A DNA stretch of 57,843 nt from Modestobacter excelsi (GTDB lineage Bacteria; Actinomycetota; Actinomycetes; Mycobacteriales; Geodermatophilaceae): positions 1 through 57,843 of the forward strand of contig NZ_SJEX01000021.1 of assembly GCF_005930495.1 (NCBI RefSeq). The letters run 5' to 3'. The position numbers and the translations under genes are program-made. The notes below the pieces were generated by a model. That model was not told the origin of the DNA, made no database searches, and worked only from the letters and a program-made list of their open reading frames with translations. This document shows positions 40,453 through 54,004 of the stretch, in pieces. The number at the start of each line of letters is the position of its first letter. Position 1 is the stretch's first letter.

Positions 40453-40484
40453 CGCGCTCCCGCGCGCGGAACTACAGACCCCGG

Positions 40485-40545
40485 CCTCCGTGCAGGAGCC
40501 CGCCGCGAGCGTGCGAGCGGTGGGAGGCACGGGGGTCCTTGCTCA
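40485..40545 (+). repeat. two-stem hairpin repeat, copy A
   Basis: Outer stem CCTCCGTGC (40485-40493) with GCACGGGGG (40527-40535); 5-nt bulge AGGAG; inner stem CCCGCCGC (40499-40506) with GCGGTGGG (40517-40524); loop GAGCGTGCGA. TCCTTGC then leads to TCA, the complement of the M23 gene's stop codon at 40543-40545. One of four copies in this window with shared design. Confidence 0.85.
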
Positions 40546-41379
40546 GAGGTCGACGCCGCGGGCGCGGAGCCAGGCCACCGGGTCGATGCGCTTGCCGTCC
40601 ATGCCGCCCGAGTGCACCTCGAAGTGCAGGTGCGGGCCGGTGGACTGGCCGCGGCTGCCCTCCAGCGCGATCGTGTCGCCGGCCTCCACGACGTCGCCCG
40701 CGTCGACGAGGATCTTCTCCATGTGCCCGTACACGGTGACGTCGCCGCTCACGCCCAGGATGTAGACGGCGTAGCCGAACCCGGTGGCGGCGCCGGCCCG
40801 CAGCACGACCCCGTCCTCGGCGGCGTACTCAGGGGTCAGCTTGGGGGCGGCCAGGTCGACGCCCCAGTGCATGGTGCCCCAGCGCATGCAGAAGCAGGTG
40901 GTCATCCGGGCGCCCTGGATCGGCATCACGGCCTTGGGGCGGGCGGCCTCGGCGGCGGCCTGCGCCGCGGCCTCGGCGGCCTCGGCCTCGGCGGCGCGCT
41001 GGGCACGGCTGGCGGCGACCTCGTCCAGCCGGGCCTTCGCCTCGACCTCGGTGATCGCCTCCTGCGGGCTCATCTCCGGCTCGAGCATCCCCTCGGCGTC
41101 CGAGCCCAGCAGCTCCGTGACCGAGAGGGGCTCCTCCGCGTCGGCCGAGGGCAGCGCCTGGGTGCCGATCACGGCGGCGGCCATGCCGCCGACCACCAGG
41201 GCGGCGAGCAGGGCAGCCGGACGGCGCCGGCCGACGGCGCTGCGGCGCGCCCGCGGAGCGGCGGTCCCGGTGGTGGCGGCCTCCGAGGTGGCAGGCTCCG
41301 GGGAGGCAGTCTCCGAGGACAGGGGCCCGACCTGTGCACCGCGGCTGCGGACGGTCGTGCCGGTGTGCCTCGAACCCAC
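40543..41379 (-). CDS. M23 family metallopeptidase
   Basis: 278 residues from a GTG at 41379 (AAGGGCAGGCACC upstream); ATGs further upstream are possible. An N-terminal basic cytoplasmic part leads to one membrane helix (ALLAALVVGGMAAAVIG), then an Ala/Glu-rich coiled coil (about 120-165) and the lysostaphin-type domain. Zinc ligands are seen in HWGVDLAAP (HxxxD) and HLHFEVH (HxH), with catalytic His in VYGHMEKI. The CFCMRWG motif before the domain may form a disulfide. It probably cleaves peptidoglycan cross-links or activates other hydrolases. Its stop abuts repeat copy A. Confidence 0.9.
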   Translation of the reverse strand: MGSRHTGTTVRSRGAQVGPLSSETASPEPATSEAATTGTAAPRARRSAVGRRRPAALLAALVVGGMAAAVIGTQALPSADAEEPLSVTELLGSDAEGMLEPEMSPQEAITEVEAKARLDEVAASRAQRAAEAEAAEAAAQAAAEAARPKAVMPIQGARMTTCFCMRWGTMHWGVDLAAPKLTPEYAAEDGVVLRAGAATGFGYAVYILGVSGDVTVYGHMEKILVDAGDVVEAGDTIALEGSRGQSTGPHLHFEVHSGGMDGKRIDPVAWLRARGVDL

Positions 41380-41544
41380 GGTGCCTGCCCTTCGCTCCCC
41401 GTCCGACGCCCCGGTGGGCCGGATCGGGTGTGCGTGCATCCAAACATCGAATGACAGAGTTGTAATTCGTTGCACGGCGTGTTCCTCCGAACACGCCGTG
41501 CAACCGCCGTGGGATGGACGATCCCGCTCCGGGACGTCGACCGG

Positions 41545-42144
41545 TCAGCCCGCGACGGCGTCGGCCGCGGGCGCCGTCGGCTGCCCGTGACCGGCGGCCC
41601 AGGAGCGGCGCACCGTCCCGAGCCCGCCGACGACCAGGCCCAGGCCACCGGCGACGAGGACCGCGACGGCGGCCCGGGCCAGCGGCTGCGGGCCGGTGGT
41701 GAGGGCGTGCGCGGTCCACAGCACGTCGATGTCGGGCAGCCCTCGACCAGCAGCAGCGCGTACAGCGGCCGGACCAGCCACCCCGGTGGCAGCGGGCTCC
41801 AGGTCAGCTCCCCGGTGACGACGTCGGCGCGGCCGTAGGTCATCGGCACCGTCCACCGGCTGACGGTGTGCGCCGATCCCGGGTCCGCGGCCACCACCGG
41901 CGGCAGCTGTCCCTCCGTCATCCAGTGCGTGCGGTGGTCGTGCCACGCGTACCGGGGCTGCGTGGAGACCTGCTCCCAGCGCGGCGCAGCGGCGATGTCG
42001 ACGTCGTCGGGCACCTGGGTGCGGCCGTAGCGGTCGAGGTCCAGCCGCCGACGTGCGCGCTCGCCGGACCCGCCACGCCCAGGGTGGCGAGCAGCCCGAG
42101 CACGACCACCCGGGCGGCGGCCCGCCACCTGCCTGCGGGCTCAC
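41545..42144 (-). pseudogene. membrane protein of the copper operon, two frameshifts
   Basis: Three frames in sequence form one sensible protein: a signal peptide (RVVVLGLLATLGVAGPASAHVG), an extracytoplasmic middle (LDLDRYGRTQVPDDVDIAAA to WLVRPLYALLLVEG) and an end with one membrane helix (ARAAVAVLVAGGLGLVVGGL) and a stop at 41545. Each junction needs only a one-base change in a GC run (about 42043 and about 41735). The start GTG overlaps the Sco stop but also needs a shift to reach the signal peptide. The gene is the fourth of the CopCD-YcnI-Sco operon. Sequencing error is as likely as decay. Confidence 0.6.
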
Positions 42145-42803
42145 TCGGCGGCGACGACGGCCAGGTCGTGGGCGATGTCGGCGCCGGTGTTGCCGGCGTC
42201 GAAGGCGACGTCGGCCTCGCCGTCGGTGCCGTAGAGCAGCAGCAGCGCCGAGTGCGTCTGGCCCATGTCCTCGGCCAGCGGCACCCCGGCGGCCAGCTGC
42301 GCCTGGTCGATCTGCTCCTGGTCGCCGGTGAGCCCGATGAACGGGGTGGGCAGGTCGGCGTCGAACTGGTCGAGGTAGGCACCGAGCACGTCCGGGGTGT
42401 CCCGGGTCGGGTCGGTGGTCACGAAGACCACCGAGGTCTCCGCGGCGACGGCCGGGTCGACCTTGCGCAGGGCCAGCGCGATGTCGGCCATCGTCGTGGG
42501 GCAGACGTCGGGGCAGTTCGTGTACCCGAAGAAGAGCAGCGTCGGTCCGGTGCCGGTGCGGTCGGCGAAGGCGAACGGGGCACCGGCGCTGTCGGTGAGG
42601 GTGAACTCCGGCTTCTGGTACGGGTCGGCCAGGTGCAGACCGTCGTAGGCGTCGTCGTCGGCGCTCTCGACCGTCGCCGGTGCGGAGGTGGCGGAGTGGT
42701 CGTGCCCCCCGCCCGTGGCGTCGGCGTCCCCGCTGCAGCCGGCCAGCAGCAGACCCGCGGCCAGCCCGAGGGCGGCCAGCGCGGGCCGGGTCACAGAGCT
42801 CAC
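42141..42803 (-). CDS. Sco1/SenC family copper chaperone lipoprotein
   Basis: 220 residues; the GTG at 42803 overlaps the previous stop by 4 bp (GTGA). A lipobox LLLAGCSG directs lipid attachment at the Cys, followed by a His/Asp-rich linker (GGGHDHSATS). The thioredoxin-like domain has FFGYTNCPDVCPTT with the CxxxC copper site and TDPTRDTPDVL; the conserved distal His is in QTHSALLLL. Sco proteins load copper into the CuA centre of cytochrome oxidase. It sits in an operon with CopCD and YcnI. Confidence 0.92.
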   Translation of the reverse strand: MSSVTRPALAALGLAAGLLLAGCSGDADATGGGHDHSATSAPATVESADDDAYDGLHLADPYQKPEFTLTDSAGAPFAFADRTGTGPTLLFFGYTNCPDVCPTTMADIALALRKVDPAVAAETSVVFVTTDPTRDTPDVLGAYLDQFDADLPTPFIGLTGDQEQIDQAQLAAGVPLAEDMGQTHSALLLLYGTDGEADVAFDAGNTGADIAHDLAVVAAE

Positions 42804-43522
42804 GAGGACACGGTACGTCGGCGCGCGCTCAGCCCGAGGCCGAGACCGGCCAGCCCGGCGAGCAGCCCGAGGACGGCGAGCACCAGGGCGACGGTGGCGG
42901 TCGTGTCCCCGCCGTCGTCCGCAGCCGCGCTCGCGGAGCTGATCGTCGGAGCGGCGCCGTGGGCGTCGGTGCCGGCCGCGGCGGAGAGCGACAGCACCGG
43001 CGCCGGGTGCTCCGGCTCGGGCTGACCGTCGACGGTCGGCTCGATCCACGCGGCCTCGCTGCCGTCGCTGTAGGTCTGCACCACGTTGAACGTCAGCCGG
43101 TCGACGTCCGGGAACGGGCCACCGGACAGCGCGAACTCCTGGAACTGCCCCGGCGCGATGCCGGTCCCCGGGTCGGCCTGGAAGTCCACCACCGAGACCG
43201 CCGAGTCGACGGTGCCGCCGTCGTCGGAGGTGACCGGCGGGTCGAGCGCGACGGTGGTCAGGGTGACCGTCCAGCCGGGCACCGGCTGGGCCCGCACCGA
43301 GGTCAGCGGCGGGTCGGTGGGCAGCTGGATGCGCAGCCCGACGGTGCTCGCGGCATCGCTCTCGTCGGGCACGCTGAAGGTGACCTTGCCGTAGCCGCCC
43401 GGGGAGGCGTCCGCCGAGGAGACCGTCACGTGCGCGGAGGCGACGCCCGTGCCGGCCAGCAGCAGGGCGCCGGCGGCCGTGAGCACGACAGGCAGTCGAC
43501 GGAGGGGGCGGACCAGGGACAC
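42800..43522 (-). CDS. ycnI: YcnI-type (DUF1775) copper-binding protein
   Basis: 240 residues from a GTG at 43522. The signal peptide ends VASAHVTVSS, placing the conserved His at the mature N-terminus, the first ligand of the copper brace; Trp ligands follow in the Ig-like DUF1775 domain (GWTVTLTT). A C-terminal helix (ATVALVLAVLGLLAGLAGLGL) anchors it in the membrane. YcnI binds Cu(II) and is usually found with CopC/CopD and Sco genes, as here. It starts 21 bp after CopCD ends. Confidence 0.92.
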   Translation of the reverse strand: MSLVRPLRRLPVVLTAAGALLLAGTGVASAHVTVSSADASPGGYGKVTFSVPDESDAASTVGLRIQLPTDPPLTSVRAQPVPGWTVTLTTVALDPPVTSDDGGTVDSAVSVVDFQADPGTGIAPGQFQEFALSGGPFPDVDRLTFNVVQTYSDGSEAAWIEPTVDGQPEPEHPAPVLSLSAAAGTDAHGAAPTISSASAAADDGGDTTATVALVLAVLGLLAGLAGLGLGLSARRRTVSS

Positions 43523-43543
43523 GGTTCTCCTCGTTCTCAGGGG

Positions 43544-45277
43544 TCAGCGGACCGGGAAGACGGTGCTGGCGGTGACGGCGGTGAACTCGTCCAGCCGGAC
43601 GGTCACGGTGAGGGTCCAGCTTCCGGCCGAGGGCAGGTCGGGATCGCCGGTGTAGTGGCCGGGGCCGGCGGCGGCGAGCCCGACGTCCAGCGGGCCGATC
43701 TGCTGCGGCACCTCGGTGAGCGAGACCGCGATCTGCTGCGGCTGGGTGAGCTGCCCGTCGGCGTCGTAGAGGTACACGTGCACGGTCGTCGGTCCGGGGG
43801 TCGCCGGGTCCACCGACACCTGGACGCTGCCGTTCCCCTCGGTGCCGCTGGCCGACTGCAACGGGAGGGTGACCTCCACCGGCATCGCGACCGACGCCTT
43901 GGCCGGGTACTGGCTGACCAGCACGGCCGACAGCGCGAGGACGACGACCGCCCCGGCGCACTCCAGGAGCACCGAGCGGCGCAGCACCCCCAGCGTGGCC
44001 GGCGGTGGATCCGCCTCCTCGGTCGCGGAGAACGCCTGGGCGACCACCCGGCGACCGGAGCCGGGACGGCGGCCCCGCCCGGCCCGCTGCTGCACCCAGT
44101 CCCGGCTGACCAGCGCGGCGACCAGCACGAGCAGCACCACCGCGAGCTTGGCCAGCAGCACCCAGCCGTAGCTGGTGGAGACCAGCGCGGAGAAGGAGCC
44201 GACCTCGCGGACCGACTGCAGCACCCCGGTGACGACGAGCGCGCCGATGTACCCCCCGGCCAGGTGCGACCAGCGGGGCAGCGCGGCGTCCAGCTCGCGG
44301 GTCGGGGTGCCGTCGCGCAGCAGGCCGGTGAACAGCACGACCAGGCCGCCCAGCCAGCCGCTCATCGCGGCCACGTGCACCGCCGACACGGCGACGGCCA
44401 GCCCGGGGAGCGCGCCCGCGACCGGGTGCCCGACCCCGGCGACCGCCACCACCAGCCCGGCGGCCAGCAGCCCGGCGACGGCGAGCGCCGGGGCACCCGG
44501 CCGTCGGCCGGACCGCCAGCTCCCCGCCAGGACGGCACCGAGGAGCACCGCCAGCGCCATGCGGACCAGCAGCGTCCGGCCGTAGCTCGAGTCGACGGTC
44601 GTGCCGACCAGCTGCCCGTCGAACAGCGACCCGAGCCCGGTGGCCGCTGCGTAGGGGCCCTGCACGAGGAGGGACAGCGCGCCGCCGACGACGACCGCGG
44701 CCAGCCCGCCCAGCGTGCCCCGGCGCAACCGCCCCGACGACCAGCCGCCGGGCCAGACGGTGGCCAGCGCCAGCGGGATGCCGAGGCCCGGCGCCACCCC
44801 GGCGTAGCCCAGCCAGCGCGCCAGCGGCAGCACCAGCGCCACCCCGGGGTCGATCGTGTCCCCGGTGCCCACCGACCCGGCCGGCACGAGCTCGCCGTCC
44901 CCGACGACGAAGGCGAAGGCACCCGAGACCGGGTGCGAGTCCGCCGACACCACCCGGTAGGTGACGACGTACCCGGCGTCGGGCAGGTCCGCGCGCAGCG
45001 GCACGGTGACGACGTCGTCGCGCACCCCGGCCGTGCCGGTGTCGACCCGCTCGCCGTCGCCGTCCAGCACGCGCGCGTACCCGGCGCCGAGGGAGACGTG
45101 CTCGTCGAACTCGATGGTCACCTGCGCCGGGGCGACGTCCACCCGCTCGCCGTCGGCGGGGGTCGTCGTCACCACCATCGCGTGCGCCGCGGCGGGCGGC
45201 GCGGTGACGACGTCGAGCAGCAGACCGGCGCCGAGCAGTGCGGACAGCAGCAGGACGGCGGGGAGCAACCGCTTCAC
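43544..45277 (-). CDS. CopC-CopD fusion copper import/resistance protein
   Basis: 577 residues from a GTG at 45277. A signal peptide is followed by AHAMVVTTTPADGERVDVAP, where the His after cleavage starts the CopC beta-barrel (about 30-125). Eight or so membrane helices of the CopD domain follow, including LARWLGYAGVAPGLG and HVAAMSGWLGGLVVLF with conserved His, then a C-terminal periplasmic domain (about 460-577) resembling the FixH/YtkA-like fold. The fusion delivers copper across the membrane. It is the first gene of the operon with YcnI and Sco and is divergent from DUF47-PiT. Confidence 0.92.
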   Translation of the reverse strand: MKRLLPAVLLLSALLGAGLLLDVVTAPPAAAHAMVVTTTPADGERVDVAPAQVTIEFDEHVSLGAGYARVLDGDGERVDTGTAGVRDDVVTVPLRADLPDAGYVVTYRVVSADSHPVSGAFAFVVGDGELVPAGSVGTGDTIDPGVALVLPLARWLGYAGVAPGLGIPLALATVWPGGWSSGRLRRGTLGGLAAVVVGGALSLLVQGPYAAATGLGSLFDGQLVGTTVDSSYGRTLLVRMALAVLLGAVLAGSWRSGRRPGAPALAVAGLLAAGLVVAVAGVGHPVAGALPGLAVAVSAVHVAAMSGWLGGLVVLFTGLLRDGTPTRELDAALPRWSHLAGGYIGALVVTGVLQSVREVGSFSALVSTSYGWVLLAKLAVVLLVLVAALVSRDWVQQRAGRGRRPGSGRRVVAQAFSATEEADPPPATLGVLRRSVLLECAGAVVVLALSAVLVSQYPAKASVAMPVEVTLPLQSASGTEGNGSVQVSVDPATPGPTTVHVYLYDADGQLTQPQQIAVSLTEVPQQIGPLDVGLAAAGPGHYTGDPDLPSAGSWTLTVTVRLDEFTAVTASTVFPVR

Positions 45278-45474
45278 GCCGGCGGCTGCCCGGGTCGGGG
45301 ACGGGTGGTCGCACGGTGCACGGGAGAACAGTCGTCGCCCGAGCCCGTCCAGTTCCCGGAAGGCGGGGGCAACCCGCTGAACGGACGATGGACCGCAGGG
45401 GACCTATGCTCCCCGAGGTCGCCATGCCCCGCGGGGAGACGGCCACCCCGTCGCCGTCACCCCCGGAGCACTGC

Positions 45475-46092
45475 GTGGCCTTCCGTCTGACCCCCAAGGA
45501 CTCGAGCTTCTACGACATGTTCACCGCCTCGGCGGAGAACCTGGTCGAGGCCACCGACGTCCTGGGCACCTTCGTGCACGAGCACACCCGCCGCGAGGAG
45601 CTCGGCCGCACCCTGCGCGACCTGGAGCACAAGGGCGACCAGGCGACCCACGCGATCTTCCGGCAGGTGAACTCCAGCTTCGTCACGCCGTTCGACCGCG
45701 AGGACATCTACAACCTGGCCAGCGACCTCGACGACGTCATGGACTGCATCGAGGCCGCCGCGGACCTGGTGGTGCTCACCAAGCTGGGGACGCTGCCTGC
45801 GGAGATGGGCCAGCAGGTCGCCCTGCTGCAGCGCTGCGCCCAGGTGACGGCGGAGTCGATGCCGCGGCTGCGCTCGATGAAGGACCTCTCCGACTACTGG
45901 ATCGAGGTCAACCGGCTGGAGAACGAGGCGGACAAGCTGTACCGCCGCCTGCTCTCCCGGCTGTACTCCGGCGAGTTCGACGCGCTGGAGATCCTCAAGC
46001 TCAAGGAGGTCGCCGACCAGCTCGAGGAGGCCGCCGACGCCTTCGAGCACGTGGCGAACGTCGTCGAGACCATCGCCGTCAAGGAGTCCTGA
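45475..46092 (+). CDS. DUF47 family phosphate transport regulator (PhoU-like)
   Basis: 205 residues from a GTG at 45475 (CGGAG 9 nt upstream), the length usual for this family; an in-frame ATG at 45424 would add 17 Pro/Ser-rich residues. FRLTPKDSSFYDMFTASAENL opens the helical bundle and DREDIYNLASDLDDVMDCIE carries the acidic ExxD-type metal motif. DUF47 proteins associate with and regulate PiT transporters; the PiT gene begins 7 bp downstream. Confidence 0.92.
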   Translation: MAFRLTPKDSSFYDMFTASAENLVEATDVLGTFVHEHTRREELGRTLRDLEHKGDQATHAIFRQVNSSFVTPFDREDIYNLASDLDDVMDCIEAAADLVVLTKLGTLPAEMGQQVALLQRCAQVTAESMPRLRSMKDLSDYWIEVNRLENEADKLYRRLLSRLYSGEFDALEILKLKEVADQLEEAADAFEHVANVVETIAVKES

Positions 46093-46099
46093 CCACCCG

Positions 46100-47101
46100 A
46101 TGGACGGGGCACTCCTGGCGCTGGTCGTCATCGTCGTCGTCGCGCTGGCCTTCGACTACACCAACGGCTTCCACGACGCGGCCAACGCGATCGCCGTCGC
46201 CGTCTCCACCAAGGCACTGACCCCGCGCGCAGCGCTCGGGCTGGCCGCGGTGATGAACCTGATCGGTGCGCTGATCTCCACCAAGGTGGCGGCCACCGTG
46301 GGGAGCGGGATCATCGACCCGCCCACCGGCGGCGGCGGCCTGCAGGTGGTGTTCGCCGCGCTCATCGGAGCGATCGTCTGGAACCTGATCACCTGGTACT
46401 TCGGGCTGCCGTCGTCGTCCTCGCACGCGTTGATCGGCGGCCTGGTGGGGGCGGCGCTGGCGGCTGCGGAGTCGGTGAAGTGGCTGGGCATCGTCGACAA
46501 GGTCGTCATCCCGATGGTGCTCTCGCCGCTGATCGGGTTCGGCCTGGGCTACCTGTTCATGCTGGCGATCCTCTGGTCCTTCCGGCGGGCCAACGCGCAC
46601 AAGGCGCACCGCGGCTTCCGCTACGCGCAGATCGTCAGCTCGGCGACGATGGCCTTCGGCCACGGCACCCAGGACGCGCAGAAGACGATGGGCATCATCA
46701 CCCTGGCGCTGGTCACCTCCGGCGAACTGGACGACTTCGACGTGCCGCTGTGGGTGATCCTCGCCTCGGCGCTGGCGATCAGCGCCGGCACCTACGCCGG
46801 TGGTTTCCGGATCATGCGGACCCTGGGCCGGCGGATCATCCAGCTGACCCCGGCCGGCGGCTTCGCGGCGCAGACCGTCGCCTCCAGCGTCCTGATCGCC
46901 ACCGCGACGGTGTTCGCCGTCCCGGTGTCGACGACGCACATCACCACCGCCTCGATCATGGGTGTCGGGGCGACCCGGCGGCTCTCGGCGGTGCGCTGGG
47001 GCGTCGCGGGCAACATCGTCGTCGCCTGGGTGGTCACCCTCCCCGCTGCCGGCGCGGTCGCCGCGGTGGCGTACTTCGTCACGCACGCGATCGTGGGCTA
47101 G
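46100..47101 (+). CDS. PiT family inorganic phosphate transporter
   Basis: 333 residues with about ten helices. The twin PiT signatures are present: FDYTNGFHDAANAIA in the first helix pair and QIVSSATMAFGHGTQDAQKT in the second half, each with the conserved Asn/His/Asp/Gln residues of the substrate path. It moves phosphate, often as metal phosphate, with protons. It is 7 bp downstream of the DUF47 partner and forms a two-gene unit. Confidence 0.94.
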   Translation: MDGALLALVVIVVVALAFDYTNGFHDAANAIAVAVSTKALTPRAALGLAAVMNLIGALISTKVAATVGSGIIDPPTGGGGLQVVFAALIGAIVWNLITWYFGLPSSSSHALIGGLVGAALAAAESVKWLGIVDKVVIPMVLSPLIGFGLGYLFMLAILWSFRRANAHKAHRGFRYAQIVSSATMAFGHGTQDAQKTMGIITLALVTSGELDDFDVPLWVILASALAISAGTYAGGFRIMRTLGRRIIQLTPAGGFAAQTVASSVLIATATVFAVPVSTTHITTASIMGVGATRRLSAVRWGVAGNIVVAWVVTLPAAGAVAAVAYFVTHAIVG

Positions 47102-47110
47102 GAAGGACCG

Positions 47111-48571
47111 GTGACGTCGTCCCCCGTGCCGGAGGGGACGACGCCCGGCCCGGTCGAGCCGGTCGGGCCGGCCGCCGCCGACGCGGTCCGGCTGGGCACC
47201 GCACCCGGCCGCTGGGTGCTGCTGGCCACCGTGCTGGCCTCGGGCATGGCGTTCCTGGACTCCAGCGCCGTCAACGTGGCGCTGCCGGCGATCGGCGAGG
47301 ACCTCGGCGCCGAGCTGGCCGGGCTGCAGTGGACCCTCAGCGGCTACACGCTGGCGCTCGCGTCGCTGATCCTGCTGGGCGGCGCGCTGGGCGACCGCTA
47401 CGGACGGCGGCGGGTCTTCGTGGTCGGCGTCATCTGGTTCGCGGTCACCTCGCTGGGCTGCGGCCTCGCCCAGACCACCGGCCAGCTGGTCGCCATGCGG
47501 GTGCTGCAGGGCGTCGGCGGCGCGCTGCTCACCCCGGGCAGCCTGGCGATCATCCAGTCCTCGTTCCCGCACGCCGACCGGCCGCGGGCCATCGGGCTGT
47601 GGTCCGCCCTCGGTGGGGTGGCCGGGCTGGTCGGACCGTTCCTCGGCGGCTTCCTGGTCGACGCGGTCAGCTGGCGGTGGGTGTTCCTGGTCAACGGGCC
47701 GCTGGCGGTCGTGGTGGTGCTGGTCGCCGTCCGGCACGTGCCGGAGAGCCGCGACCCCGGGCGCACCGGGCGGTTCGACGCCCTCGGGGCGGTGTGGGGG
47801 GCGCTGGCGCTGGCCGGGGTGACCTACGCGCTCATCGCGGCCGGTGACGGTCCCGGCCGGCCCCAGGTCTGGGTCGCCGCGGCGGTCGGCGCGCTGGCCG
47901 GGGTGGCGTTCGTCCGCCGCGAGCGGCGGGCGCGCGAGCCCATGCTGCCGCCCGCGGTGTTCGGCGACCGGGAGTTCACCGGCGCCAACCTCAGCACCTT
48001 CCTGGTCTACGGCGCGCTGGGTGGCTGGGGGTTCTTCCTGGTCGTCGAGCTGCAGACCGTGCTCGGCTACAGCGCCACCGAGGCGGGGGCGGCGATGATC
48101 CCGTCGACCGTCGTGCTCATCCTGCTGTCCTCCCGGGCCGGTGCGCTGGCGCAGCGCACCGGCGCCCGGCTGCCGATGGCGGTCGGTCCGCTGGTCACCG
48201 CCGCCGGCCTGCTCTGGTTGTCCCGGGTGGAGGCGGGCAGCTCCTTCCTGCGTGACGTGCTGCCACCGTCGCTGGTCAGCGGGATCGGGCTCGCCCTGCT
48301 GGTGGCCCCGCTGACCGCGACCGTGCTGGACGCCGCGCCCGACCACCTCGCCGGCGTCGCCAGCGGGGTGAACAACGCGGTCGCCCGGGCGGCGCAGCTG
48401 CTCGCGGTGGCCGCGCTGCCGGTCGCGGTCGGCCTCTCCGGGGACGACTACGCCGACCCGGCCAGCTTCAGCGACGGCTTCCGCACGGCGATGGTGGTCT
48501 GCGCGGGGCTGCTCGTGGGTGGCGGCGCGGTCGCCTGGGCGACGATCAGGACCGACACGCTCAGGGGGTGA
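47111..48571 (+). CDS. MFS transporter, DHA2 (EmrB/QacA-like) family
   Basis: 486 residues from a GTG 9 bp after the PiT stop (GGAAGGACCG upstream). Fourteen helices are predicted. The first has MAFLDSSAVNVALPAIGEDL (motif D1 of 14-helix drug transporters), then GGALGDRYGRRRVFV (motif A) and GVGGALLTPGSLAIIQSSFP (motif C, the antiporter signature). It probably exports hydrophobic cations or other drugs. It may be co-transcribed with PiT, but the link is probably chance. Confidence 0.92.
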   Translation: MTSSPVPEGTTPGPVEPVGPAAADAVRLGTAPGRWVLLATVLASGMAFLDSSAVNVALPAIGEDLGAELAGLQWTLSGYTLALASLILLGGALGDRYGRRRVFVVGVIWFAVTSLGCGLAQTTGQLVAMRVLQGVGGALLTPGSLAIIQSSFPHADRPRAIGLWSALGGVAGLVGPFLGGFLVDAVSWRWVFLVNGPLAVVVVLVAVRHVPESRDPGRTGRFDALGAVWGALALAGVTYALIAAGDGPGRPQVWVAAAVGALAGVAFVRRERRAREPMLPPAVFGDREFTGANLSTFLVYGALGGWGFFLVVELQTVLGYSATEAGAAMIPSTVVLILLSSRAGALAQRTGARLPMAVGPLVTAAGLLWLSRVEAGSSFLRDVLPPSLVSGIGLALLVAPLTATVLDAAPDHLAGVASGVNNAVARAAQLLAVAALPVAVGLSGDDYADPASFSDGFRTAMVVCAGLLVGGGAVAWATIRTDTLRG

Positions 48572-48628
48572 GCGAGGCCTGCGGACCCGCCGCTCGACAA
48601 AGCCCACCGGGATGGTAGGAATGACGTC

Positions 48629-48724
48629 GTGCCGACGTCCGCAGAGCTCCCTGGCGACCTGCTGGTGAGCCGACTGCACGTCGACCTGCTCCGCGTGACC
48701 ACCACCGCCTGTCGCGGCTGCTGA
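48629..48724 (+). CDS. cysteine-type leader peptide upstream of the sulfite exporter
   Basis: 31-codon ORF from GTG at 48629 (TAGGAATGACGTC upstream), or 19 codons from an in-frame GTG at 48665. It ends SRLHVDLLRVTTTACRGC and a stop. The HVDLxRV core with Cys just before the stop is the pattern of actinobacterial leader peptides found before sulfur-assimilation and transport genes. Slow translation of the Cys codons when cysteine is scarce is thought to control the downstream gene. A GC-rich hairpin (GCGCG to CGCGC, about 48731-48746) follows, and the TauE-type gene starts 84 bp later. Confidence 0.75.
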   Translation: MPTSAELPGDLLVSRLHVDLLRVTTTACRGC

Positions 48725-48808
48725 CCCCTGCGCGCTCCCGCGCGCCTCCCCTCAGCCCTGCGGCCCGCGTCTGCGTGCGCGACCGTGCCCTCACCTCGGA
48801 GCCTCCCC

Positions 48809-49807
48809 GTGAAGACCCTCATCGTGCTCGCCCTGGCCGGCCTCGGCGCCCAGCTCGTCGACGGCAGCCTCGGCATGGGCTACGGCGTCACCTCGACGAC
48901 GCTGCTGCTCGCCCTCGGCACCAACCCGGCCGCCGCCTCCGCCACCGTCCACCTGGCCGAGATCGGCACCAACCTCGCCTCGGGCGTCTCCCACTGGCGG
49001 TTCGGCAACGTCGACTGGGGGGTCGTCGCCAAGATCGGCGTCCCCGGAGCCGTCGGCGCCTTCGTCGGGGCGACCGTGCTGTCGAACCTCTCCACCGAGG
49101 TCGCCGCACCGGTCATGCAGCTGATCCTGCTGGCCCTCGGCCTCTACCTGCTGGCCCGCTTCACGCTGCGCGGGATCGACAAGCGGCACCTGGGCAAGCC
49201 GATGCGCAAGCGCTTCCTCGCCCCGCTGGGGCTGGCCGCGGGCTTCGTCGACGCCACCGGCGGCGGCGGCTGGGGCCCGGTCAGCACCCCGGCCATCCTG
49301 GCCAGCGGCCGGCTGGAGCCGCGCAAGACGATCGGCTCGATCGACACCTCCGAGTTCCTCGTCTCGGTGGCGGCGAGCCTCGGCTTCCTCCTCGCCCTCG
49401 GCGACCAGGGCATCGACGTCGGCTGGGTCGCTGCGCTGCTGGTCGGTGGGCTGGTCGCCGCGCCGATCGCGGCCTGGTTGGTGCGCTACGTGCCGCCGCG
49501 GCTGCTCGGCGCCGGCGTCGGCGGGATCATCGTGCTGACCAACGCCAAGAGCCTGCTCACCAGCGACTGGATCGACGCCGGCGACCCGGTCCGGTACACG
49601 GTCTACGCGGTCGTCTACCTGGTCTGGGCCGCCGCGGTGACGTGGTCCTACCGCGAGTACCGCAAGGACCGCGCCCAGGAGTCGGCCGACGCGCTGTCCG
49701 CCGAGGCGGCCCGGCTGGCCGAGGCGGAGGGGGCCGCCGCCCCGAACGGGGTCGCCCCGGTCGAGGAGTCCGTCCGCTCCGGCCGGCCGAGCGCCCCGCG
49801 CGACTGA
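48809..49807 (+). CDS. TauE/SafE family sulfite (anion) exporter
   Basis: 332 residues from a GTG at 48809 (CGGAG upstream); an earlier in-frame GTG at 48785 is possible. Eight to nine helices. Two inverted repeats each start with a Gly-rich motif: QLVDGSLGMGYGVTSTTLLL in the first and GLAAGFVDATGGGGWGPVST in the second, diagnostic of TauE/SafE (DUF81). A charged C-terminal tail follows. The leader peptide indicates sulfur control, so the likely substrate is sulfite or a sulfonate. Its stop codon is the first base set of repeat copy B. Confidence 0.9.
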   Translation: MKTLIVLALAGLGAQLVDGSLGMGYGVTSTTLLLALGTNPAAASATVHLAEIGTNLASGVSHWRFGNVDWGVVAKIGVPGAVGAFVGATVLSNLSTEVAAPVMQLILLALGLYLLARFTLRGIDKRHLGKPMRKRFLAPLGLAAGFVDATGGGGWGPVSTPAILASGRLEPRKTIGSIDTSEFLVSVAASLGFLLALGDQGIDVGWVAALLVGGLVAAPIAAWLVRYVPPRLLGAGVGGIIVLTNAKSLLTSDWIDAGDPVRYTVYAVVYLVWAAAVTWSYREYRKDRAQESADALSAEAARLAEAEGAAAPNGVAPVEESVRSGRPSAPRD

Positions 49808-49864
49808 GCAAGCACCCTCCTGCCCCCACCGCTCGCAAGCTCGCGGCGGGCCCCTGCAGGAGGG
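49805..49864 (-). repeat. two-stem hairpin repeat, copy B
   Basis: Reverse orientation relative to the other copies, as its gene is on the plus strand. Outer stem CCCTCCTGC (49815-49823) with GCAGGAGGG (49856-49864), a perfect 9 bp; inner stem CCCACCGC (49825-49832) with GCGGCGGG (49843-49850); loop, read on the minus strand, GAGCTTGCGA. It begins at the TGA of the TauE gene (49805-49807) and ends 3 bp before the stop of the convergent XRE gene, so it could end both transcripts. Confidence 0.85.
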
Positions 49865-49867
49865 CCG

Positions 49868-50461
49868 TCAGCTCCCCTTCGGGCGGGCGCGGACGTGCAT
49901 GCGCTCGCCCTGCGGCCCGAAGAGCATCAGGACCTCCACCGGCTGGTCGGTGACGTTGCCGAACCAGTGCGGGGTGTGGGTGTCGAACTCGGCGACCTCC
50001 CCGGGGCCCAGGACGAGGTCGTGCCCCCCCAGCAGCAGCCGCAGCCGACCGGACAGCACGTACATCCACTCGTAGCCCTCGTGCGACTGCTGCTCCGGCT
50101 CGCGCCGTCCCTGCGGCGGGATCAACGCCCGGTAGGCCTGCACCCCGCCGGGCCGGCGGGTCAGCGGCCACATGGTCATGCCGTTGCGCTGGACCGGCTG
50201 CGGGTGGACCCGCGGATCGGCCGCGGACGGCGCCCCGACCAGCTCGTCCAGCGGCACCTGGTGGACCCGGGCGAGCGGCAGCAGCAGCTCCAGGGTGGGC
50301 CGGCGCTGCCCCGACTCGAGCCGGGACAGCGTGCTCACCGAGATGCCCGTGCTGGCAGAGAGCTCGGCCAGCGTCGCCCCGTGCTGCCGGCGCAGCTCGC
50401 GCAGCCGCGGCCCCACGCCGTCGAGCACGCCGTCAAGGTCGCCGTCCAGGTCGTCGTCCAT
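49868..50461 (-). CDS. XRE family regulator with cupin sensor domain
   Basis: 197 residues. An acidic start (MDDDLDGDLDGVLDG) precedes a classical HTH, LRELRRQHGATLAELSASTG with ISVSTLSRLESGQRRP (about 18-72), and a C-terminal cupin (about 110-185) with HEGYEWMYVLSGRLRLLL and PGEVAEFDTHTPHWFGN giving the two metal-binding motifs. This architecture senses small molecules. It is divergent from the flavoprotein-methyltransferase pair and probably controls it through the inverted repeat between them. Confidence 0.9.
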   Translation of the reverse strand: MDDDLDGDLDGVLDGVGPRLRELRRQHGATLAELSASTGISVSTLSRLESGQRRPTLELLLPLARVHQVPLDELVGAPSAADPRVHPQPVQRNGMTMWPLTRRPGGVQAYRALIPPQGRREPEQQSHEGYEWMYVLSGRLRLLLGGHDLVLGPGEVAEFDTHTPHWFGNVTDQPVEVLMLFGPQGERMHVRARPKGS

Positions 50462-50497
50462 GCGTCCATTTGCTGCTCCGGCAACGGAGTTTGTCAA

Positions 50498-50517
50498 GTG
50501 CACCCCCACGGGTGCAC
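50498..50517. promoter_or_regulatory. operator candidate between XRE-cupin and flavoprotein genes
   Basis: GTGCACCC (50498-50505) and GGGTGCAC (50510-50517) form a perfect 8-bp inverted repeat with a 4-nt spacer. A second, smaller repeat CTCCG-GCAA-CGGAG lies at 50476-50489. Both fall in the 100-bp divergent promoter, 37 and 15 bp from the XRE start. Confidence 0.6.
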
Positions 50518-50561
50518 CGTCGTCCCTGCCGGGCCCACCCGGCGGTCGAGAGGAGCAGACG

Positions 50562-51578
50562 ATGGACGAGCGGCACGACGTGGTGGTGGTCGGCGGCGGC
50601 GCCGCCGGCCTGAGCGGGGCGTTGGCGCTGGGCCGCGCCCGGCGGTCGGTGCTGGTGGTGGACGGCGGACAGCCGCGGAACGCCCCGGCCGACGCGATGC
50701 ACAACTACCTGGGCCGCGACGGCACCCCGCCCGGCGACCTGCTGGCCGCCGGACGGGCGGAGGTCGCCGGGTACGGCGGGCGGGTCGTGACCGGCGAGGC
50801 CGTCTCCGCCCGGGCCGAGGACGGCGGGTTCGTCGTCCGGCTGGCCGACGGGCAGGAGGTGCGGAGCAGGCGGCTGCTGGTCACCACAGGACTGGTCGAC
50901 GAGCTGCCCGACCTGCCCGGACTCCGCGAGCGGTGGGGTTCCGACGTGCTGCACTGCCCGTACTGCCACGGCTGGGAGGTCCGCGACCGGGCCGTCGGGG
51001 TGCTGTCGACCGGGCCGGCGGGCGTGCTGAAGGCGCTGCTCTGGCGGCAGTGGACGGCGGACGTGACGCTGTTCCTGCACACCGGACCGGAGCCCACCGA
51101 CGAGGAGTGTGAGCAGCTGGCCGCCCGCGGCATCGCGGTGGTGACCGGGGAGGTGGCCGCGGTGGAGTCCGCCGGCGACCGGCTGACCGGCGTCCGGCTC
51201 GCCTCGGGCCGGGTGGTCCCGCGGGACGCGCTGGTGGTCTCCCCCGTCTTCACCGCCCGCTCCGCGGTGCTGGCCTCGCTCGGCCTGCCGGTGGAGCCGG
51301 TGGAGGCGATGGGGCACACCGTCGGCACCGCCGTGCCCTCCGGGCCGATGGGCGCGACCGCCGTCCCCGGGGTGTGGGTGGCCGGCAACGTCACCGACCT
51401 GATGGCCCAGGTGGTCACCGCGGCCGCGGCGGGGCTGCAGGCCGGTGCCGCGATCAACGCCGATCTGCTGTTCGAGGACGTCCGCCTGGCGGTGCAGGAG
51501 CGGCGGGCACCGTTCTCCGCTGCCACCGAACGCGAGTTGTGCGACATGGTGCTGGGCGACCGGCGCCACGGGATCTGA
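50562..51578 (+). CDS. thioredoxin-reductase-like NAD(P)/FAD oxidoreductase
   Basis: 338 residues; GAGAGGAGCAGACG precedes the ATG. It has HDVVVVGGGAAGLSGALALG (FAD), the redox pair in VLHCPYCHGWEVRDR (CxxC) and a late GVWVAGNVTDLMAQVVTAAA. The NADPH-binding motif in the middle (GVLSTGPAGVLKAL) is weakened. This is the branch often fused or linked to XRE-cupin regulators rather than true TrxB; its partner is unknown. It is 9 bp upstream of a methyltransferase gene. Confidence 0.9.
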   Translation: MDERHDVVVVGGGAAGLSGALALGRARRSVLVVDGGQPRNAPADAMHNYLGRDGTPPGDLLAAGRAEVAGYGGRVVTGEAVSARAEDGGFVVRLADGQEVRSRRLLVTTGLVDELPDLPGLRERWGSDVLHCPYCHGWEVRDRAVGVLSTGPAGVLKALLWRQWTADVTLFLHTGPEPTDEECEQLAARGIAVVTGEVAAVESAGDRLTGVRLASGRVVPRDALVVSPVFTARSAVLASLGLPVEPVEAMGHTVGTAVPSGPMGATAVPGVWVAGNVTDLMAQVVTAAAAGLQAGAAINADLLFEDVRLAVQERRAPFSAATERELCDMVLGDRRHGI

Positions 51579-51587
51579 GGAGCACCG

Positions 51588-52220
51588 GTGCAGGGACACG
51601 AGCACGGGCCGGTGTCGACCGGCCACGACCACGCCTCCTGGGAGGAGCGCTACCGGGACGCCCCGGCGCTGTGGAGCGGACGGGTCAACCCGCCCCTGGT
51701 CACCGAGGCCACCGGGCTGACCCCGGGCCGCGCGCTGGACGTCGGCTGTGGCGAGGGGGGTGACGCGCTGTGGCTGGCCGGCCAGGGCTGGCAGGTCACC
51801 GGCCTGGACTGGTCGGAGGTCGCGCTGGCCCGCGCCGCGGAGCACGCGGCCGCGGCCGGGGTCGGCGAGCGGGTGACCTGGGTGTGCGGCGACGTCGACA
51901 CCTGGCAGCCGCCGGTCGCGGCGTACGACCTGGTCACCGCCCACTTCCTGCACCCGACGGCCGCGCAGCGGCACGCCCTGGTGCCCCGACTCGCGGCCGC
52001 TGTCGCCCCCGGCGGGACGCTGCTGTGGGTCGGCCACCCCTACGACGAGGAGCGCGCCGCCCTCTGGGGTGGGGAGCGGTTCGCCACCGCCGCCGAGGTG
52101 GCCGCCGACCTCGATCCCGGGGAGTGGGAGGTGCTGGTGGCTGCCCAGCGTCCGCGGGCCGGCCAGGACGCCGGTCACCACCACGCCGACGAGGTCCTGC
52201 GGGCCCGCCGGCGGGGCTGA
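51588..52220 (+). CDS. class I SAM-dependent methyltransferase
   Basis: 210 residues from a GTG with GAGGAGCACCG upstream. A His-rich start (QGHEHGPVSTGHDHASWEER) precedes motif I, RALDVGCGEGGDALWLAGQG, and the fold continues with VTGLDWSEVALARA and YDLVTAHFLHP. A similar fold occurs in tellurite-resistance TehB-like and thiopurine-type enzymes. With the flavoprotein and XRE-cupin genes it forms a recurrent actinobacterial cassette of unknown function. Its stop touches the stop of the convergent epimerase gene (adjacent TGA and TCA). Confidence 0.88.
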   Translation: MQGHEHGPVSTGHDHASWEERYRDAPALWSGRVNPPLVTEATGLTPGRALDVGCGEGGDALWLAGQGWQVTGLDWSEVALARAAEHAAAAGVGERVTWVCGDVDTWQPPVAAYDLVTAHFLHPTAAQRHALVPRLAAAVAPGGTLLWVGHPYDEERAALWGGERFATAAEVAADLDPGEWEVLVAAQRPRAGQDAGHHHADEVLRARRRG

Positions 52221-53016
52221 TCAGCCGTCAGCGAGCAGCGCGGCCTCCAGCTCCGGCGGCAGCCGGGCAGCTCCCGGGCGGCCGGGGGCTCCGGCCGGTC
52301 GGCGGCCTGCATCCAGGCCCAGCTCCCGGGCGCGGGTGGTGTCGACCTCCCACGCGGTAGGGGCCGTCTCCGGCGCCAGCCACAGCGGCAGGTGCACCCA
52401 CTCCTCGACACCGGCGGCCAGCAGGTGGGCGTCGGGGACGCGCACCCACTCCGCGTCGCTGCCGGTGACCGCACGGCAGGTGTCCAGCAGCCCGCCCAGC
52501 GTCGTCATCCCGGCCGGCCCGGTGGTGTTCACCGGGCCCGACAGCCCCCGCTCTGCCACCTCGACCAGCCAGCCGGCCAGGTCCCGGGCGTCGACCAGCG
52601 CGATCGGCTGGGCGGTGTTCCCCGGGACGACGACCCGGCCACCCGCGGCGATCCTGTCCAGCCACCAGCCGAGCCGGTACAGCGGGTCGAACGGGCCGAC
52701 GATCAACCCGGCCCGGGCGGTGAGGAACCGGTCCCGCAGCGCCGCGCCCAGCACCCGCTCGGCGTGCGCCTTGTCCTGGCCGTACCCGCGTTCCTCGGTC
52801 TGCCAGGTCGGCTCGTCGTTCTCGCTGCCGATCGGGCCGGGCGGCCAGTTCTGGTAGGCGTTGAGGCTGCTGGCCCCCGTGCAGGGCGCGGGCCCCGTCC
52901 GGCGGGGCGCCGGACACGCCGCGGGTGAAGGTGGCGACCTCGTGCCCGCGCTCGAGCCCGGCGCTGACCACGTGCCGCCCGAGGAAGAGCGTGCCGCCGA
53001 GGACCAGGAGTCGCAT
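52221..53016 (-). pseudogene. NAD-dependent epimerase/dehydratase with internal deletion
   Basis: The start at 53016 gives MRLLVLGGTLFLGRHVVSAG and continues FTRGVSGAPPDGARALHG. Immediately after, at about 52875, the frame changes and reads SSLNAYQNWPPGPIGSENDE with GYGQDKAHAERVLG, then continues normally to a stop at 52221 (VVVPGNTAQPIALVDARDLA, SGPVNTTGPAG). About 50 residues that normally lie between these parts are absent. The catalytic YxxxK equivalent (YGQDK) survives but is out of frame. Confidence 0.8.
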
Positions 53017-53092
53017 GCGCCGACCTCAGCGCACCCGCCCGCCGCCGTCCACCCGGTTCACCCCCGGCGTACCCGGTGACGTGCTGGAACGG

Positions 53093-53153
53093 CCCCCTTC
53101 CAGGGGCCCGCCCCGAGCGTGCGAGGGGTGGGGAGGAAGGGGGTCCTTCCTCA
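53093..53153 (+). repeat. two-stem hairpin repeat, copy C
   Basis: Outer stem CCCCCTTCC (53093-53101) with GGAAGGGGG (53135-53143), perfect; bulge AGGGG; inner stem CCCGCCCC (53107-53114) with GGGGTGGG (53125-53132), where two bases on each side have changed together relative to the other copies; loop GAGCGTGCGA. TCCTTCC leads to TCA, the DUF5994 stop (53151-53153). Confidence 0.88.
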
Positions 53154-53651
53154 GCCGGCGCGGACGCCGCGGAGGGGGACGACCTCGGGGCGCGGACGGG
53201 AGCCGGCCGCGGCGAGCACCCGCTGCGGGCTCCCGGAGTCCTCGCGCAGGCCGGCCATCCGCAGCGCGCGGACGCCGGTCAGCGCGTCGGCCTCCGGCGG
53301 CACGACGAGCAGGTCGAGCCGCCGGTCGCCGTCCACGGTCAGCGAGACCAGCTGCGGGTCCATGCTGCGGAAGGCGCCGGTGCGCACGGTCCGCCCGGAG
53401 ACGGTGACCTTGCGCTGCACCGGGTGCTCCCAGGCCTCGACCGGGTAGGTGAACCGCTCCACCCGGACGTCGAGCATGGACAGGGCGGCGATCAGCTCGG
53501 GGAGCTCGGCGCCCAGGTCCCGGCTGCGCGGCCACCAGGCACCGTCGACCGCGGCGTCACCCGCCGCCCCCTCCCGGCGCAGCCGCACCCGCACGTCGAT
53601 CCCGTTCCGGAAACCCGCTGCCCGCTGGACCGTCATCGACTGCCCGACCAC
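53151..53651 (-). CDS. DUF5994 family protein
   Basis: 166 residues from a GTG at 53651 (AGGGCGAGAG upstream), with an in-frame ATG at 53636 as alternative. DGAWWPRSRDLGAELPELIA, then GAFRSMDPQLVSLTVDG and LDLLVVPPEAD are the conserved blocks of the actinobacterial DUF5994 family. No signal peptide or membrane helix. The function is unknown; paralogues are frequent in this group. It stands alone and ends at repeat copy C. Confidence 0.8.
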   Translation of the reverse strand: MVGQSMTVQRAAGFRNGIDVRVRLRREGAAGDAAVDGAWWPRSRDLGAELPELIAALSMLDVRVERFTYPVEAWEHPVQRKVTVSGRTVRTGAFRSMDPQLVSLTVDGDRRLDLLVVPPEADALTGVRALRMAGLREDSGSPQRVLAAAGSRPRPEVVPLRGVRAG

Positions 53652-53943
53652 CTCTCGCCCTCATCCCCCAGGTGTCGTGCGGCCTCCCCAGCCGCGCACA
53701 CCTCTCGCGACGGGAACGTACGACCGGCACCGCGACACCCCCGCGCGCCACGAGGGACGCCGCAGTGGCTGTCCGGCCAGGGCGGCCTGTCATCACCTGA
53801 CGTGATCATCCGGCCACTGTCACCACAGGAGCACCACCTGTATCGGCAGGTGTGGCCCGCGCGCCGTCGCCGACACCCCCCGGAACGCCGGACGCCGCCG
53901 TCCCCGAGGGGACGACGGCGTTCGCGGTGACGTGCTGGAACGG
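53652..53943. other. intergenic upstream of the DUF5994 gene
   Basis: 292 bp between the DUF5994 start and repeat copy D. It has a few imperfect palindromes, such as TGTCATCACCTGACGTGATCA near 53789, partly symmetric and possibly a regulator site. No gene is visible. Confidence 0.35.
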
Positions 53944-54001
53944 CCCCGCTGCAGGGTCCCGCCGCGAGCTTGCGAGCGGTGGGGGGCAGTGGGGTCCTTC
54001 G

Positions 54002-54004
<3 letters not shown>
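53944..54004 (+). repeat. two-stem hairpin repeat, copy D
   Basis: Outer stem CCCCGCTGC (53944-53952) with GCAGTGGGG (53986-53994), one G-U pair; bulge AGGGT; inner stem CCCGCCGC (53958-53965) with GCGGTGGG (53976-53983); loop GAGCTTGCGA. TCCTTCG leads to TCA, the complement of the typA stop (54002-54004). The flank ACGTGCTGGAACGG before the outer stem is shared with copy C. Confidence 0.88.

What the first reader, a model, noticed from the sequence alone, without database searches (positions are those of the whole stretch)
40485..54004. Family of covarying two-stem hairpins that begin exactly at stop codons
Four copies (40485-40545, 49805-49864, 53093-53153, 53944-54004) share one design: 9-bp outer stem, 5-nt one-sided bulge (AGGRK), 8-bp inner stem and a near-invariant 10-nt loop GAGCKTGCGA. 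Outer stems differ in every copy (CCTCCGTGC, CCCTCCTGC, CCCCCTTCC, CCCCGCTGC) yet each pairs with its own partner; the inner stem of copy C changed on both sides. In all four the element starts at the stop codon of the adjacent gene (M23, TauE, DUF5994, typA). The strict position, covariation and fixed loop go beyond a generic terminator and suggest a recognised RNA element, a specialised terminator or a mobile REP-like unit.
Basis: partly seen in the sequence, partly recalled or inferred. Interest (0 to 1): 0.78.

Follow-up and report, generated by a model that had tools for sequence, protein, structure and literature searches.

The report
Stop-codon-hugging mobile hairpin repeats
A family of short, apparently mobile, hairpin-forming DNA repeats sits directly behind the stop codons of many genes in soil and rock bacteria related to Modestobacter, is often swapped for a different copy at the same place between close species, and lacks the enzyme known to spread similar repeats in other bacteria.

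Summary
The four window copies belong to a family of at least 177 copies in this genome, found in 102 of 112 Geodermatophilaceae genomes searched but in 3 of 296 drawn from the class: this one and two with weak hits. 143 of 177 copies begin within 15 nt of a stop codon of a same-strand gene, 84 with identical spacing. Stems vary with compensation. The complement of the mRNA strand folds better in 169 of 177 copies and no U-tract follows. Eleven of 166 copies carry part of an older copy right behind them, 7 starting at its hairpin tip. Best reading: a REP-like mobile palindrome that docks behind stop codons and is repeatedly replaced. No Y1 (RAYT-type) transposase was found in 108 genomes of the family, so the mover is unknown. 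A terminator role is not excluded.

The parts
40483..40545 (-). Copy A behind the M23 peptidase gene: stop TGA 40545-40543, foot AAGGA 40540-40536, outer arms 40535-40527 and 40493-40485, inner arms 40524-40517 and 40506-40499, loop 40516-40507
   Evidence: 79.4 bits; Pfam
49805..49866 (+). Copy B behind the TauE gene: stop TGA 49805-49807, outer arms 49815-49823 and 49856-49864, inner arms 49825-49832 and 49843-49850, loop 49833-49842; lies between two convergent genes (the other ends at 49868)
   Evidence: (79.6 bits); Pfam
53075..53153 (-). Copy C behind the DUF5994 gene: stop TGA 53153-53151, outer arms 53143-53135 and 53101-53093, inner arms 53132-53125 and 53114-53107 (CCCC/GGGG in place of CCGC/GCGG), loop 53124-53115, tail GTTCCAGCACGTCACC 53090-53075
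   Evidence: 84.7 bits; Pfam
53926..54004 (-). Copy D behind typA: stop TGA 54004-54002, outer arms 53994-53986 and 53952-53944, inner arms 53983-53976 and 53965-53958, loop 53975-53966, tail GTTCCAGCACGTCACC 53941-53926
   Evidence: 90.9 bits; Pfam
53890..53923 (-). Separate inverted repeat (GAACGCCGTCGTCCCC..GGGGACGGCGGCG type) just downstream of copy D, kept with or without the element in 11 of 15 relatives: probable typA terminator
   Evidence: compared by eye; boundaries approximate

Best explanation
It is a dispersed, non-autonomous, REP-like mobile palindrome of Geodermatophilaceae. Its unit is about 75 nt, from GAAGGACC to the tail ..CCGTTCCAGCACGTCACC where that is kept. New copies end up directly behind stop codons, oriented with AAGGACC at the stop. 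Shown by sequence: copy number, lineage restriction, fixed register to the stop, compensating stems, strong strand bias of folding, patchy presence, a different copy at the same stop in a close relative, and nested remnants in which a complete unit is joined by its tail to the hairpin tip of an older one whose stop-proximal half is gone. Inferred: that copies move at all (no movement was observed); that the folded, recognised form is the single DNA strand complementary to the mRNA; that insertion or copying acts at a short G-W-N site (a stop codon, or the loop of an existing copy), either through an unidentified enzyme other than a Y1/RAYT transposase or through template switching at hairpins during replication; and that selection against copies inside genes leaves those at stop codons. 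In the mRNA the copy then forms a 3'-UTR hairpin a few nt after the stop, which may affect termination, decay or ribosome release; that effect is not shown.
For: Copy number: 94 core hits with up to 2 mismatches against 4 for the reversed pattern; 150 of 150 scored candidates matched, at the cap; 177 distinct copies read. Range: 102 of 112 genomes of the family, 3 of 296 of the class including this one. Copy number swings within genera: 146-149 of 150 scored in G085, G087, G106 and G043, but 0, 4, 2, 1 and 5 in G001, G007, G017, G029 and G076. Placement: of 60 copies in long gaps behind a same-strand gene, 49 are within 6 nt of the stop against 4.6 expected for random placement (maximum 12 of 2000 runs). 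G at -6 from GGAC is found in 83% of 29 copies without a nearby stop and 65% of 65 copies whose stop lies in another register, so part of the junction motif does not depend on the stop. Turnover: 54 gene ends with an orthologue in G085 (last 110-150 nt of the gene 86-100% identical): same copy 4, different copy 21, inverted copy 4, none 25; controls 0 same-strand copies of 20 (Fisher p 6e-5 for 25/54 against 0/20). Nested remnants: 12 of 166 copies in an unbiased scan, 11 of them directly behind, controls 3 of 166 and 2 of 165; 7 of 12 begin within -3..+1 of the loop's GCTC. 18 distinct tip junctions from three genera, and none found with the older stop-proximal half retained (patterns chosen for these junctions). 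Strand: the complement folds better in 169 of 177 copies, median 6.3 kcal/mol, control 39 of 74.
Against: No enzyme or autonomous element was found; Y1_Tnp is absent (0 of 1 and 0 of 108 genomes). No clean empty site with target duplication or exact join was obtained; flanks differ at most empty sites (by eye). Occupation of the same stop at 25 of 54 sites, above the controls, could also mean selection for a hairpin there. Of the 21 'different' copies 17 have 67-82% identity to ours over 66 nt, but four have 85-88% (L082, L085, L108, L138) and could be the same copy diverged or partly converted. Stop usage at element sites (TGA 111 of 134) equals that elsewhere (276 of 321), so there is no simple TGA target. 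Only 41 of 165 copies carry the tail.
Confidence: 0.68

Rival explanations
1. A family of U-less (I-shaped) transcription terminators or 3'-end protecting hairpins, kept behind stops by selection and exchanged between genes by gene conversion.
For: Occupied at the same stops above controls. Gene ends without the element also show post-stop hairpins (18 of 74 with z below -2, against 2 of 74 in the same genes before the stop), and orthologous ends lacking the element show 10 of 25 (10/25 against 18/74 is not significant, p 0.20). Hairpin ends without U-tract are known in Streptomyces Term-seq (PMC8269248, passages).
Against: No U-tract in 165 copies and 36 of 72 co-directional next starts within 60 nt. 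typA has a separate terminator-like inverted repeat behind the element. The mRNA strand is the poorer folder in 169 of 177. Present at few orthologues of the window genes.
Confidence: 0.2
2. A hairpin that tunes translation by hindering the terminating ribosome, as reported for E. coli REPs closer than 16 nt to the stop.
For: 138 of 177 copies lie within 6 nt of the standard stop spacing. E. coli precedent quoted in PMC12306157, section 8.
Against: Patchy among orthologues. It would be an effect, and does not explain spreading or the strand bias. Not testable here.
Confidence: 0.15
3. A DNA site for a nucleoid protein, topoisomerase or recombination protein, with the hairpin as cruciform.
For: Largely fixed loop and strand-asymmetric mismatches at inherited positions; mostly outside genes (11 of 177 inside a called gene).
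Against: Fixed orientation to the stop and occupation by different stems are not expected. No candidate protein was sought or found.
Confidence: 0.1
4. A structured RNA acting from antisense transcripts, since the complement folds best.
For: G-U pairs fall on the complement: sense A-C 28 against sense G-U 3 in outer stems of 114 copies, in part from an inherited position.
Against: 72 of 143 stop-proximal copies have a co-directional next gene, so no regular transcript of the complement is expected. The inner-stem bias (194 to 17) is mostly two inherited positions; the other six give 26 to 15.
Confidence: 0.05

Closest known systems
REP elements (GTAG and CGTC super-families) and RAYTs (PMC3733652; abstract, passages, section 15 seen)
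   Same: Short palindromes in high copy number, between convergent or co-directional genes, close to the 3' end of the upstream ORF; G-T pairs in stems; GTAG REPs often supply a TAG stop; copy number varies between related species; CGTC REPs lack a dedicated transposase.
   Different: About 75 nt with two stacked stems and a one-sided bulge instead of 20-40 bp; no GTAG or CGTC tag at the foot as a rule (NG AAGGACC, first base free); no Y1 transposase found in the family; a narrow register to the stop codon; tip-junction replacement, which I did not see in the parts I read.
E. coli REPs near stop codons and computed REPs in other phyla (PMC12306157; abstract, sections 8 and 11, passages seen)
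   Same: Some lie within 15 nt of a stop (446 of 4,072 predicted in E. coli) and are cited as lowering translation there; predicted palindromes are counted in three Actinomycetota.
   Different: Those counts are algorithmic and not one sequence family; here 81% of one family is stop-proximal.
MIRU of mycobacteria (one passage in PMC12548453; insertion at DTGA recalled from Supply et al. 1997, not read)
   Same: Actinobacterial mobile intergenic repeat that inserts at a translation signal with little harm to the gene.
   Different: MIRUs are said to insert at start codons and carry an ORF coupled to the next gene; this family sits behind stops and is a palindrome. An ORF inside the unit was not tested.
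I-shaped (U-less) terminators of GC-rich bacteria (PMC8269248, passages seen)
   Same: GC-rich hairpin behind the gene without U-tract.
   Different: Here a repeat family with fixed loop and foot, patchy, and followed by a separate terminator-like repeat at typA.
MITEs (general knowledge)
   Same: Short non-autonomous repeats near genes.
   Different: No parent transposon was searched for systematically; target duplications not seen by eye.

Membership tests
REP (GTAG/CGTC tagged) | Palindrome in high copy number, mostly in intergenic DNA | tested here: met
   177 distinct copies, 11 of them inside a called gene
REP (GTAG/CGTC tagged) | Unpaired GTAG or CGTC tag at one end | tested here: not met
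   Foot is G-N-N-GAAGGACC with free middle bases; CGTC occurs in reverse complement only where the foot reads TGACG; a tail holding ACGTCACC or similar is in 41 of 165 copies at up to 4 mismatches
REP with RAYT | Y1 (IS200/IS605) transposase in the genome | tested here: not met
   PF01797: 0 in own genome, 0 of 108 genomes of the family; the same search rang in 6 and 5 of 14 control genomes
REP (GTAG/CGTC tagged) | Size 20-40 bp | tested here: not met
   Hairpin of about 57 nt plus a tail in some
Intrinsic terminator, U-rich type | U-tract after the hairpin | tested here: not met
   0 of 165 with 4 or more T in 8 nt
I-shaped terminator | Mapped transcript 3' end at the hairpin | not testable with these tools
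   No RNA data
MITE | Target-site duplication and a parent transposase with the same ends | tested here: inconclusive
   No duplication seen by eye at the sites compared; parent element not searched systematically
MIRU | Insertion at a start codon with internal ORF coupled to the next gene | tested here: not met
   143 of 177 sit behind a stop; the ORF part was not tested
Known Rfam family | Match above gathering score | tested here: not met
   Only a tRNA found in the window

The most novel reading that the evidence does not exclude
A new kind of mobile palindrome whose spreading is guided by single-stranded hairpin tips and stop-codon junctions: each new copy attaches its tail to the apex of the resident hairpin and replaces the half next to the stop, so that one gene end receives a succession of different hairpin cassettes without harm to the coding sequence, driven by an enzyme or replication process not yet described.
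Probability: 0.3. Interest if true: 0.82.

Novelty: new variant of a known kind. Interest (0 to 1): 0.62.

Why it matters
GTAG-type REPs are thought to be moved by Y1 transposases; here a large, apparently active family exists where no Y1 transposase was found in 108 genomes of the family, giving a clean system for finding another mover. A different hairpin at the same stop codon between species whose gene ends are 86-100% identical makes turnover directly measurable. It also shows how a bacterial genome can acquire and exchange 3'-UTR hairpins at many genes at once, with possible effects on termination, mRNA decay and ribosome release.

Tried and rejected
Known RNA family: none besides a tRNA. 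RAYT/IS200 transposase: absent. Phage or plasmid carriage: no exact match of one 27-base core pattern in viral contigs, no plasmid match to copy D. TGA as the specific target: stop usage equals the baseline. Old stop-proximal half kept before a new copy: 0 found with one pattern. DNA-level palindrome correction as the cause of covariation: unlikely, because the A-C mismatch at inner position 4 persists in 125 of 168 copies. Inner-stem wobble counts as proof of strand: discounted, because two inherited positions dominate; the folding-energy comparison is stronger but rests on some of the same inherited positions. Exceptional folding of single copies: not found; over 70 copies the median z is -1.16 for the mRNA strand and -1.73 for the complement.

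Limits: the gene caller was a home-made codon score trained on the window, so contexts can be wrong; deduplication was by identical first 70 nt; R1 contains the stop columns; copies from other genomes are mostly best-scoring ones. Of 177 copies, 168 had a recognisable loop, 165 a stem and 160 an anchor; the rest were dropped from those counts. In 'same' means at least 90% identity over 66 nt after the stop. Two sites counted there as 'none' (L048, L115) show by eye an inverted copy in the relative that my window or rule missed. Control gene ends came from the same fetched stretches, not from the whole genome at random.
Full report
Observation. The four hairpins are at the given places. Seen from the adjacent stop codon, all four read TGA-NN-AAG(G/C)ACC foot, 9-nt outer arm, 8-nt inner arm, 10-nt loop TCGCNNGCTC, inner arm, 5-nt bulge, outer arm, CC. 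Three are on the minus strand and one on the plus strand, each on the strand of its gene (M23, TauE, DUF5994, typA). Copies C and D also share the tail GTTCCAGCACGTCACC. Folded singly they are not exceptional (z 0.0 to -2.4), and the loop motif with one mismatch is not enriched in the window; the case rests on the repeated design.

Family. The 18-nt core gives 94 places in the genome at up to two mismatches against 4 for the reversed pattern. From the fetched stretches I read 190 hits, 177 distinct. In the family Geodermatophilaceae 102 of 112 genomes have copies. Of 296 genomes drawn from the class only this one and two others, with 1 and 3 weak hits, match. A DUF5994 scan gave 30 named loci; the 15 nearest, from Modestobacter, Goekera and strain URHA0031, were searched with R1, the other 15 (Rhodococcus, Mycobacterium and others) were not. 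Copy number differs sharply inside genera: 146-149 of 150 scored in G085, G087, G106 and G043, 81 in G024, but 0, 4, 2, 1 and 5 in G001, G007, G017, G029 and G076. One core pattern had no exact match in viral contigs, and copy D had no plasmid match.

Position. 143 of 177 copies have a same-strand stop within 15 nt, 138 within 6, and 84 at exactly the same spacing; stops are TGA 116, TAG 21, TAA 6. Of 30 copies fetched by the core alone, 29 lie within 15 nt. In 60 copies lying behind a same-strand gene in gaps at least 60 nt longer than the element, 49 are within 6 nt of the stop; random placement gives 4.6 and never more than 12 in 2000 runs. In other genomes 47 of 53 copies, mostly best-scoring, lie within 6 nt, 41 exactly. 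Stop usage next to elements (TGA 111 of 134) matches that of other genes (276 of 321). The next gene is co-directional in 72, convergent in 67 and not seen in 4 of the 143. A G at -6 from GGAC is common whether or not the stop uses it (65% of 65, 83% of 29), so the junction motif is roughly G-N-N-GAAGGACC. A few copies without a stop sit just before a likely -10 element of a divergent gene (by eye).

Structure. Covariation exceeds shuffles and slid controls on an unfitted alignment and in a fixed-position test on 168 copies. The complement of the mRNA strand folds better in 169 of 177 copies, median 6.3 kcal/mol, against 39 of 74 for gene ends without the element. The reason is visible in the sequence: recurrent A-C mismatches in the mRNA strand are G-U or G-T pairs in the complement, and the loop GAGCNNGCGA can add G-A pairs there (structural inference). 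Much of this comes from a few inherited positions. No U-tract follows (0 of 165).

Comparison between species. At typA the element is present behind the same stop in 5 of 15 named relatives (L190, L197, L200, L201, L202) and absent or reduced in the others; a terminator-like inverted repeat a little further downstream is kept in 11 of 15 by eye (L193, L195 and L197 have a different one and L203 is not syntenic). Behind DUF5994 only L190 of 15 has a copy. Among 20 other TauE orthologues three have a same-strand copy (L227, L228, L229); among 19 other M23 orthologues whose end could be read, one (L256), with inverted copies in L264, L265 and L272. Some empty sites keep a short remnant such as TGAGGAAGGACCCC in L225 or a reduced hairpin in L198. 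For a wider test I took 55 gene ends with elements and compared them with G085; the length of its contig C72 equals that of a Modestobacter altitudinis record. 54 had an orthologue: same copy 4, different copy behind the same stop 21, inverted copy 4, none 25. Of 20 control gene ends without element, none had a same-strand copy and one had an inverted copy (Fisher p 6e-5). Of the 21 different copies, 17 share 67-82% and four 85-88% with ours over 66 nt, while the last 110-150 nt of the gene are 86-100% identical. So gene ends keep an element above the background, but the element itself is usually another one, often with a different spacing to the stop.

Nested remnants. In an unbiased scan 12 of 166 copies are followed by part of another copy (controls 3 of 166 and 2 of 165); one of these (L122) lies 45 nt away, leaving 11 directly behind. 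In 7 of 12 the older part starts within -3..+1 of the GCTC of its loop. A pattern that asks for the tip junction, (G/C)TC(A/G)CC, up to 3 nt, GCTC, gives 18 distinct cases from three genera, some two deep (L130, L175, L432); in all of them the spacer was 1-2 nt. One pattern for an older stop-proximal half kept before a new copy gave no case. At one site (L026 against L333) the older type remains in the relative while this genome shows a new unit plus the old 3' half (by eye). This points to polar replacement: a complete new unit from the stop to GTCACC is joined to the apex of the resident hairpin.

Reading. The simplest account is a mobile REP-like palindrome. Spreading is inferred from comparison, not observed. 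The known mover of GTAG REPs, a Y1 transposase, was found in none of 108 genomes of the family nor in the own genome. The mover may be another enzyme, or replication template switching at hairpins. Selection against copies inside genes can account for part of the stop-codon preference, but not for the narrow register, which needs a junction rule or selection on spacing. Function in the host is open; post-stop hairpins are frequent even without the element (18 of 74 with z below -2 against 2 of 74 before the stop), and orthologous ends lacking the element show 10 of 25, which is not significantly more (p 0.20). The element may be tolerated, or used as one of several 3'-end hairpins.

Known systems. 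PMC3733652 (abstract, passages and section 15 read) describes GTAG and CGTC REPs, their closeness to the 3' ends of ORFs, GTAG REPs that supply stop codons, and the missing transposase of CGTC REPs; the searched words Geodermatophilus, Modestobacter, Blastococcus, Frankia and Actinobacteria do not occur in its main text. PMC12306157 (abstract, sections 8 and 11, passages) reports E. coli REPs within 15 nt of stops, cites their effect on translation, and counts predicted REPs in three Actinomycetota. PMC12548453 (one passage) describes MIRUs. PMC8269248 (passages) describes U-less terminators in Streptomyces. My paper searches listed no description of this family; the library is partial and I saw only listings there.

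Noticed in passing
L231, L232, L255, L269, L271, L273 behind the stops of TauE or M23 orthologues: Other palindromic repeats (GCTTTCGGTACCGAAAGC and TTTCGGCGCCGAAACC types) also sit shortly behind stop codons in Modestobacter relatives.
   Followed up: no
L263 and L264, end of the M23 orthologue: The last codons and the stop are repeated in tandem (CGCCCGCGGCGTCGAGCTGTAG units).
   Followed up: no
L197 near 3508-3736; L311 near 1640-1760; L453: Tandem head-to-tail repeats of the element core at one stop codon, about 54 bp unit in L197.
   Followed up: no
L225, TauE site: A 5' remnant of the element (TGAGGAAGGACCCC) is followed by a different large palindrome (GTTGATCATGGGCG...), as if another repeat had replaced the rest.
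   Followed up: no
L191, L194, L196, L198-L202 upstream of typA: A mostly older-looking copy of the element family, in inverted orientation, lies between the preceding gene and typA in several species, unlike the patchy young copies.
   Followed up: partly
L028:2789, L086:1501, L062:2215, L147:588: Copies without a stop that lie just before a likely -10 element of a divergent gene with a nearby start codon (by eye).
   Followed up: partly
L045, L096, L104, L064, L316, L322, L333: A second subfamily (CGTCCTCCTCACCCCTCGC..GGGGCGAGCCTCTGGACG) coexists with the main one and alternates with it at orthologous stops.
   Followed up: partly
G392 and G113 (L219-L222): Weak matches to the model in two genomes of another family of the class; could be a distant relative of the element or chance.
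   Followed up: no
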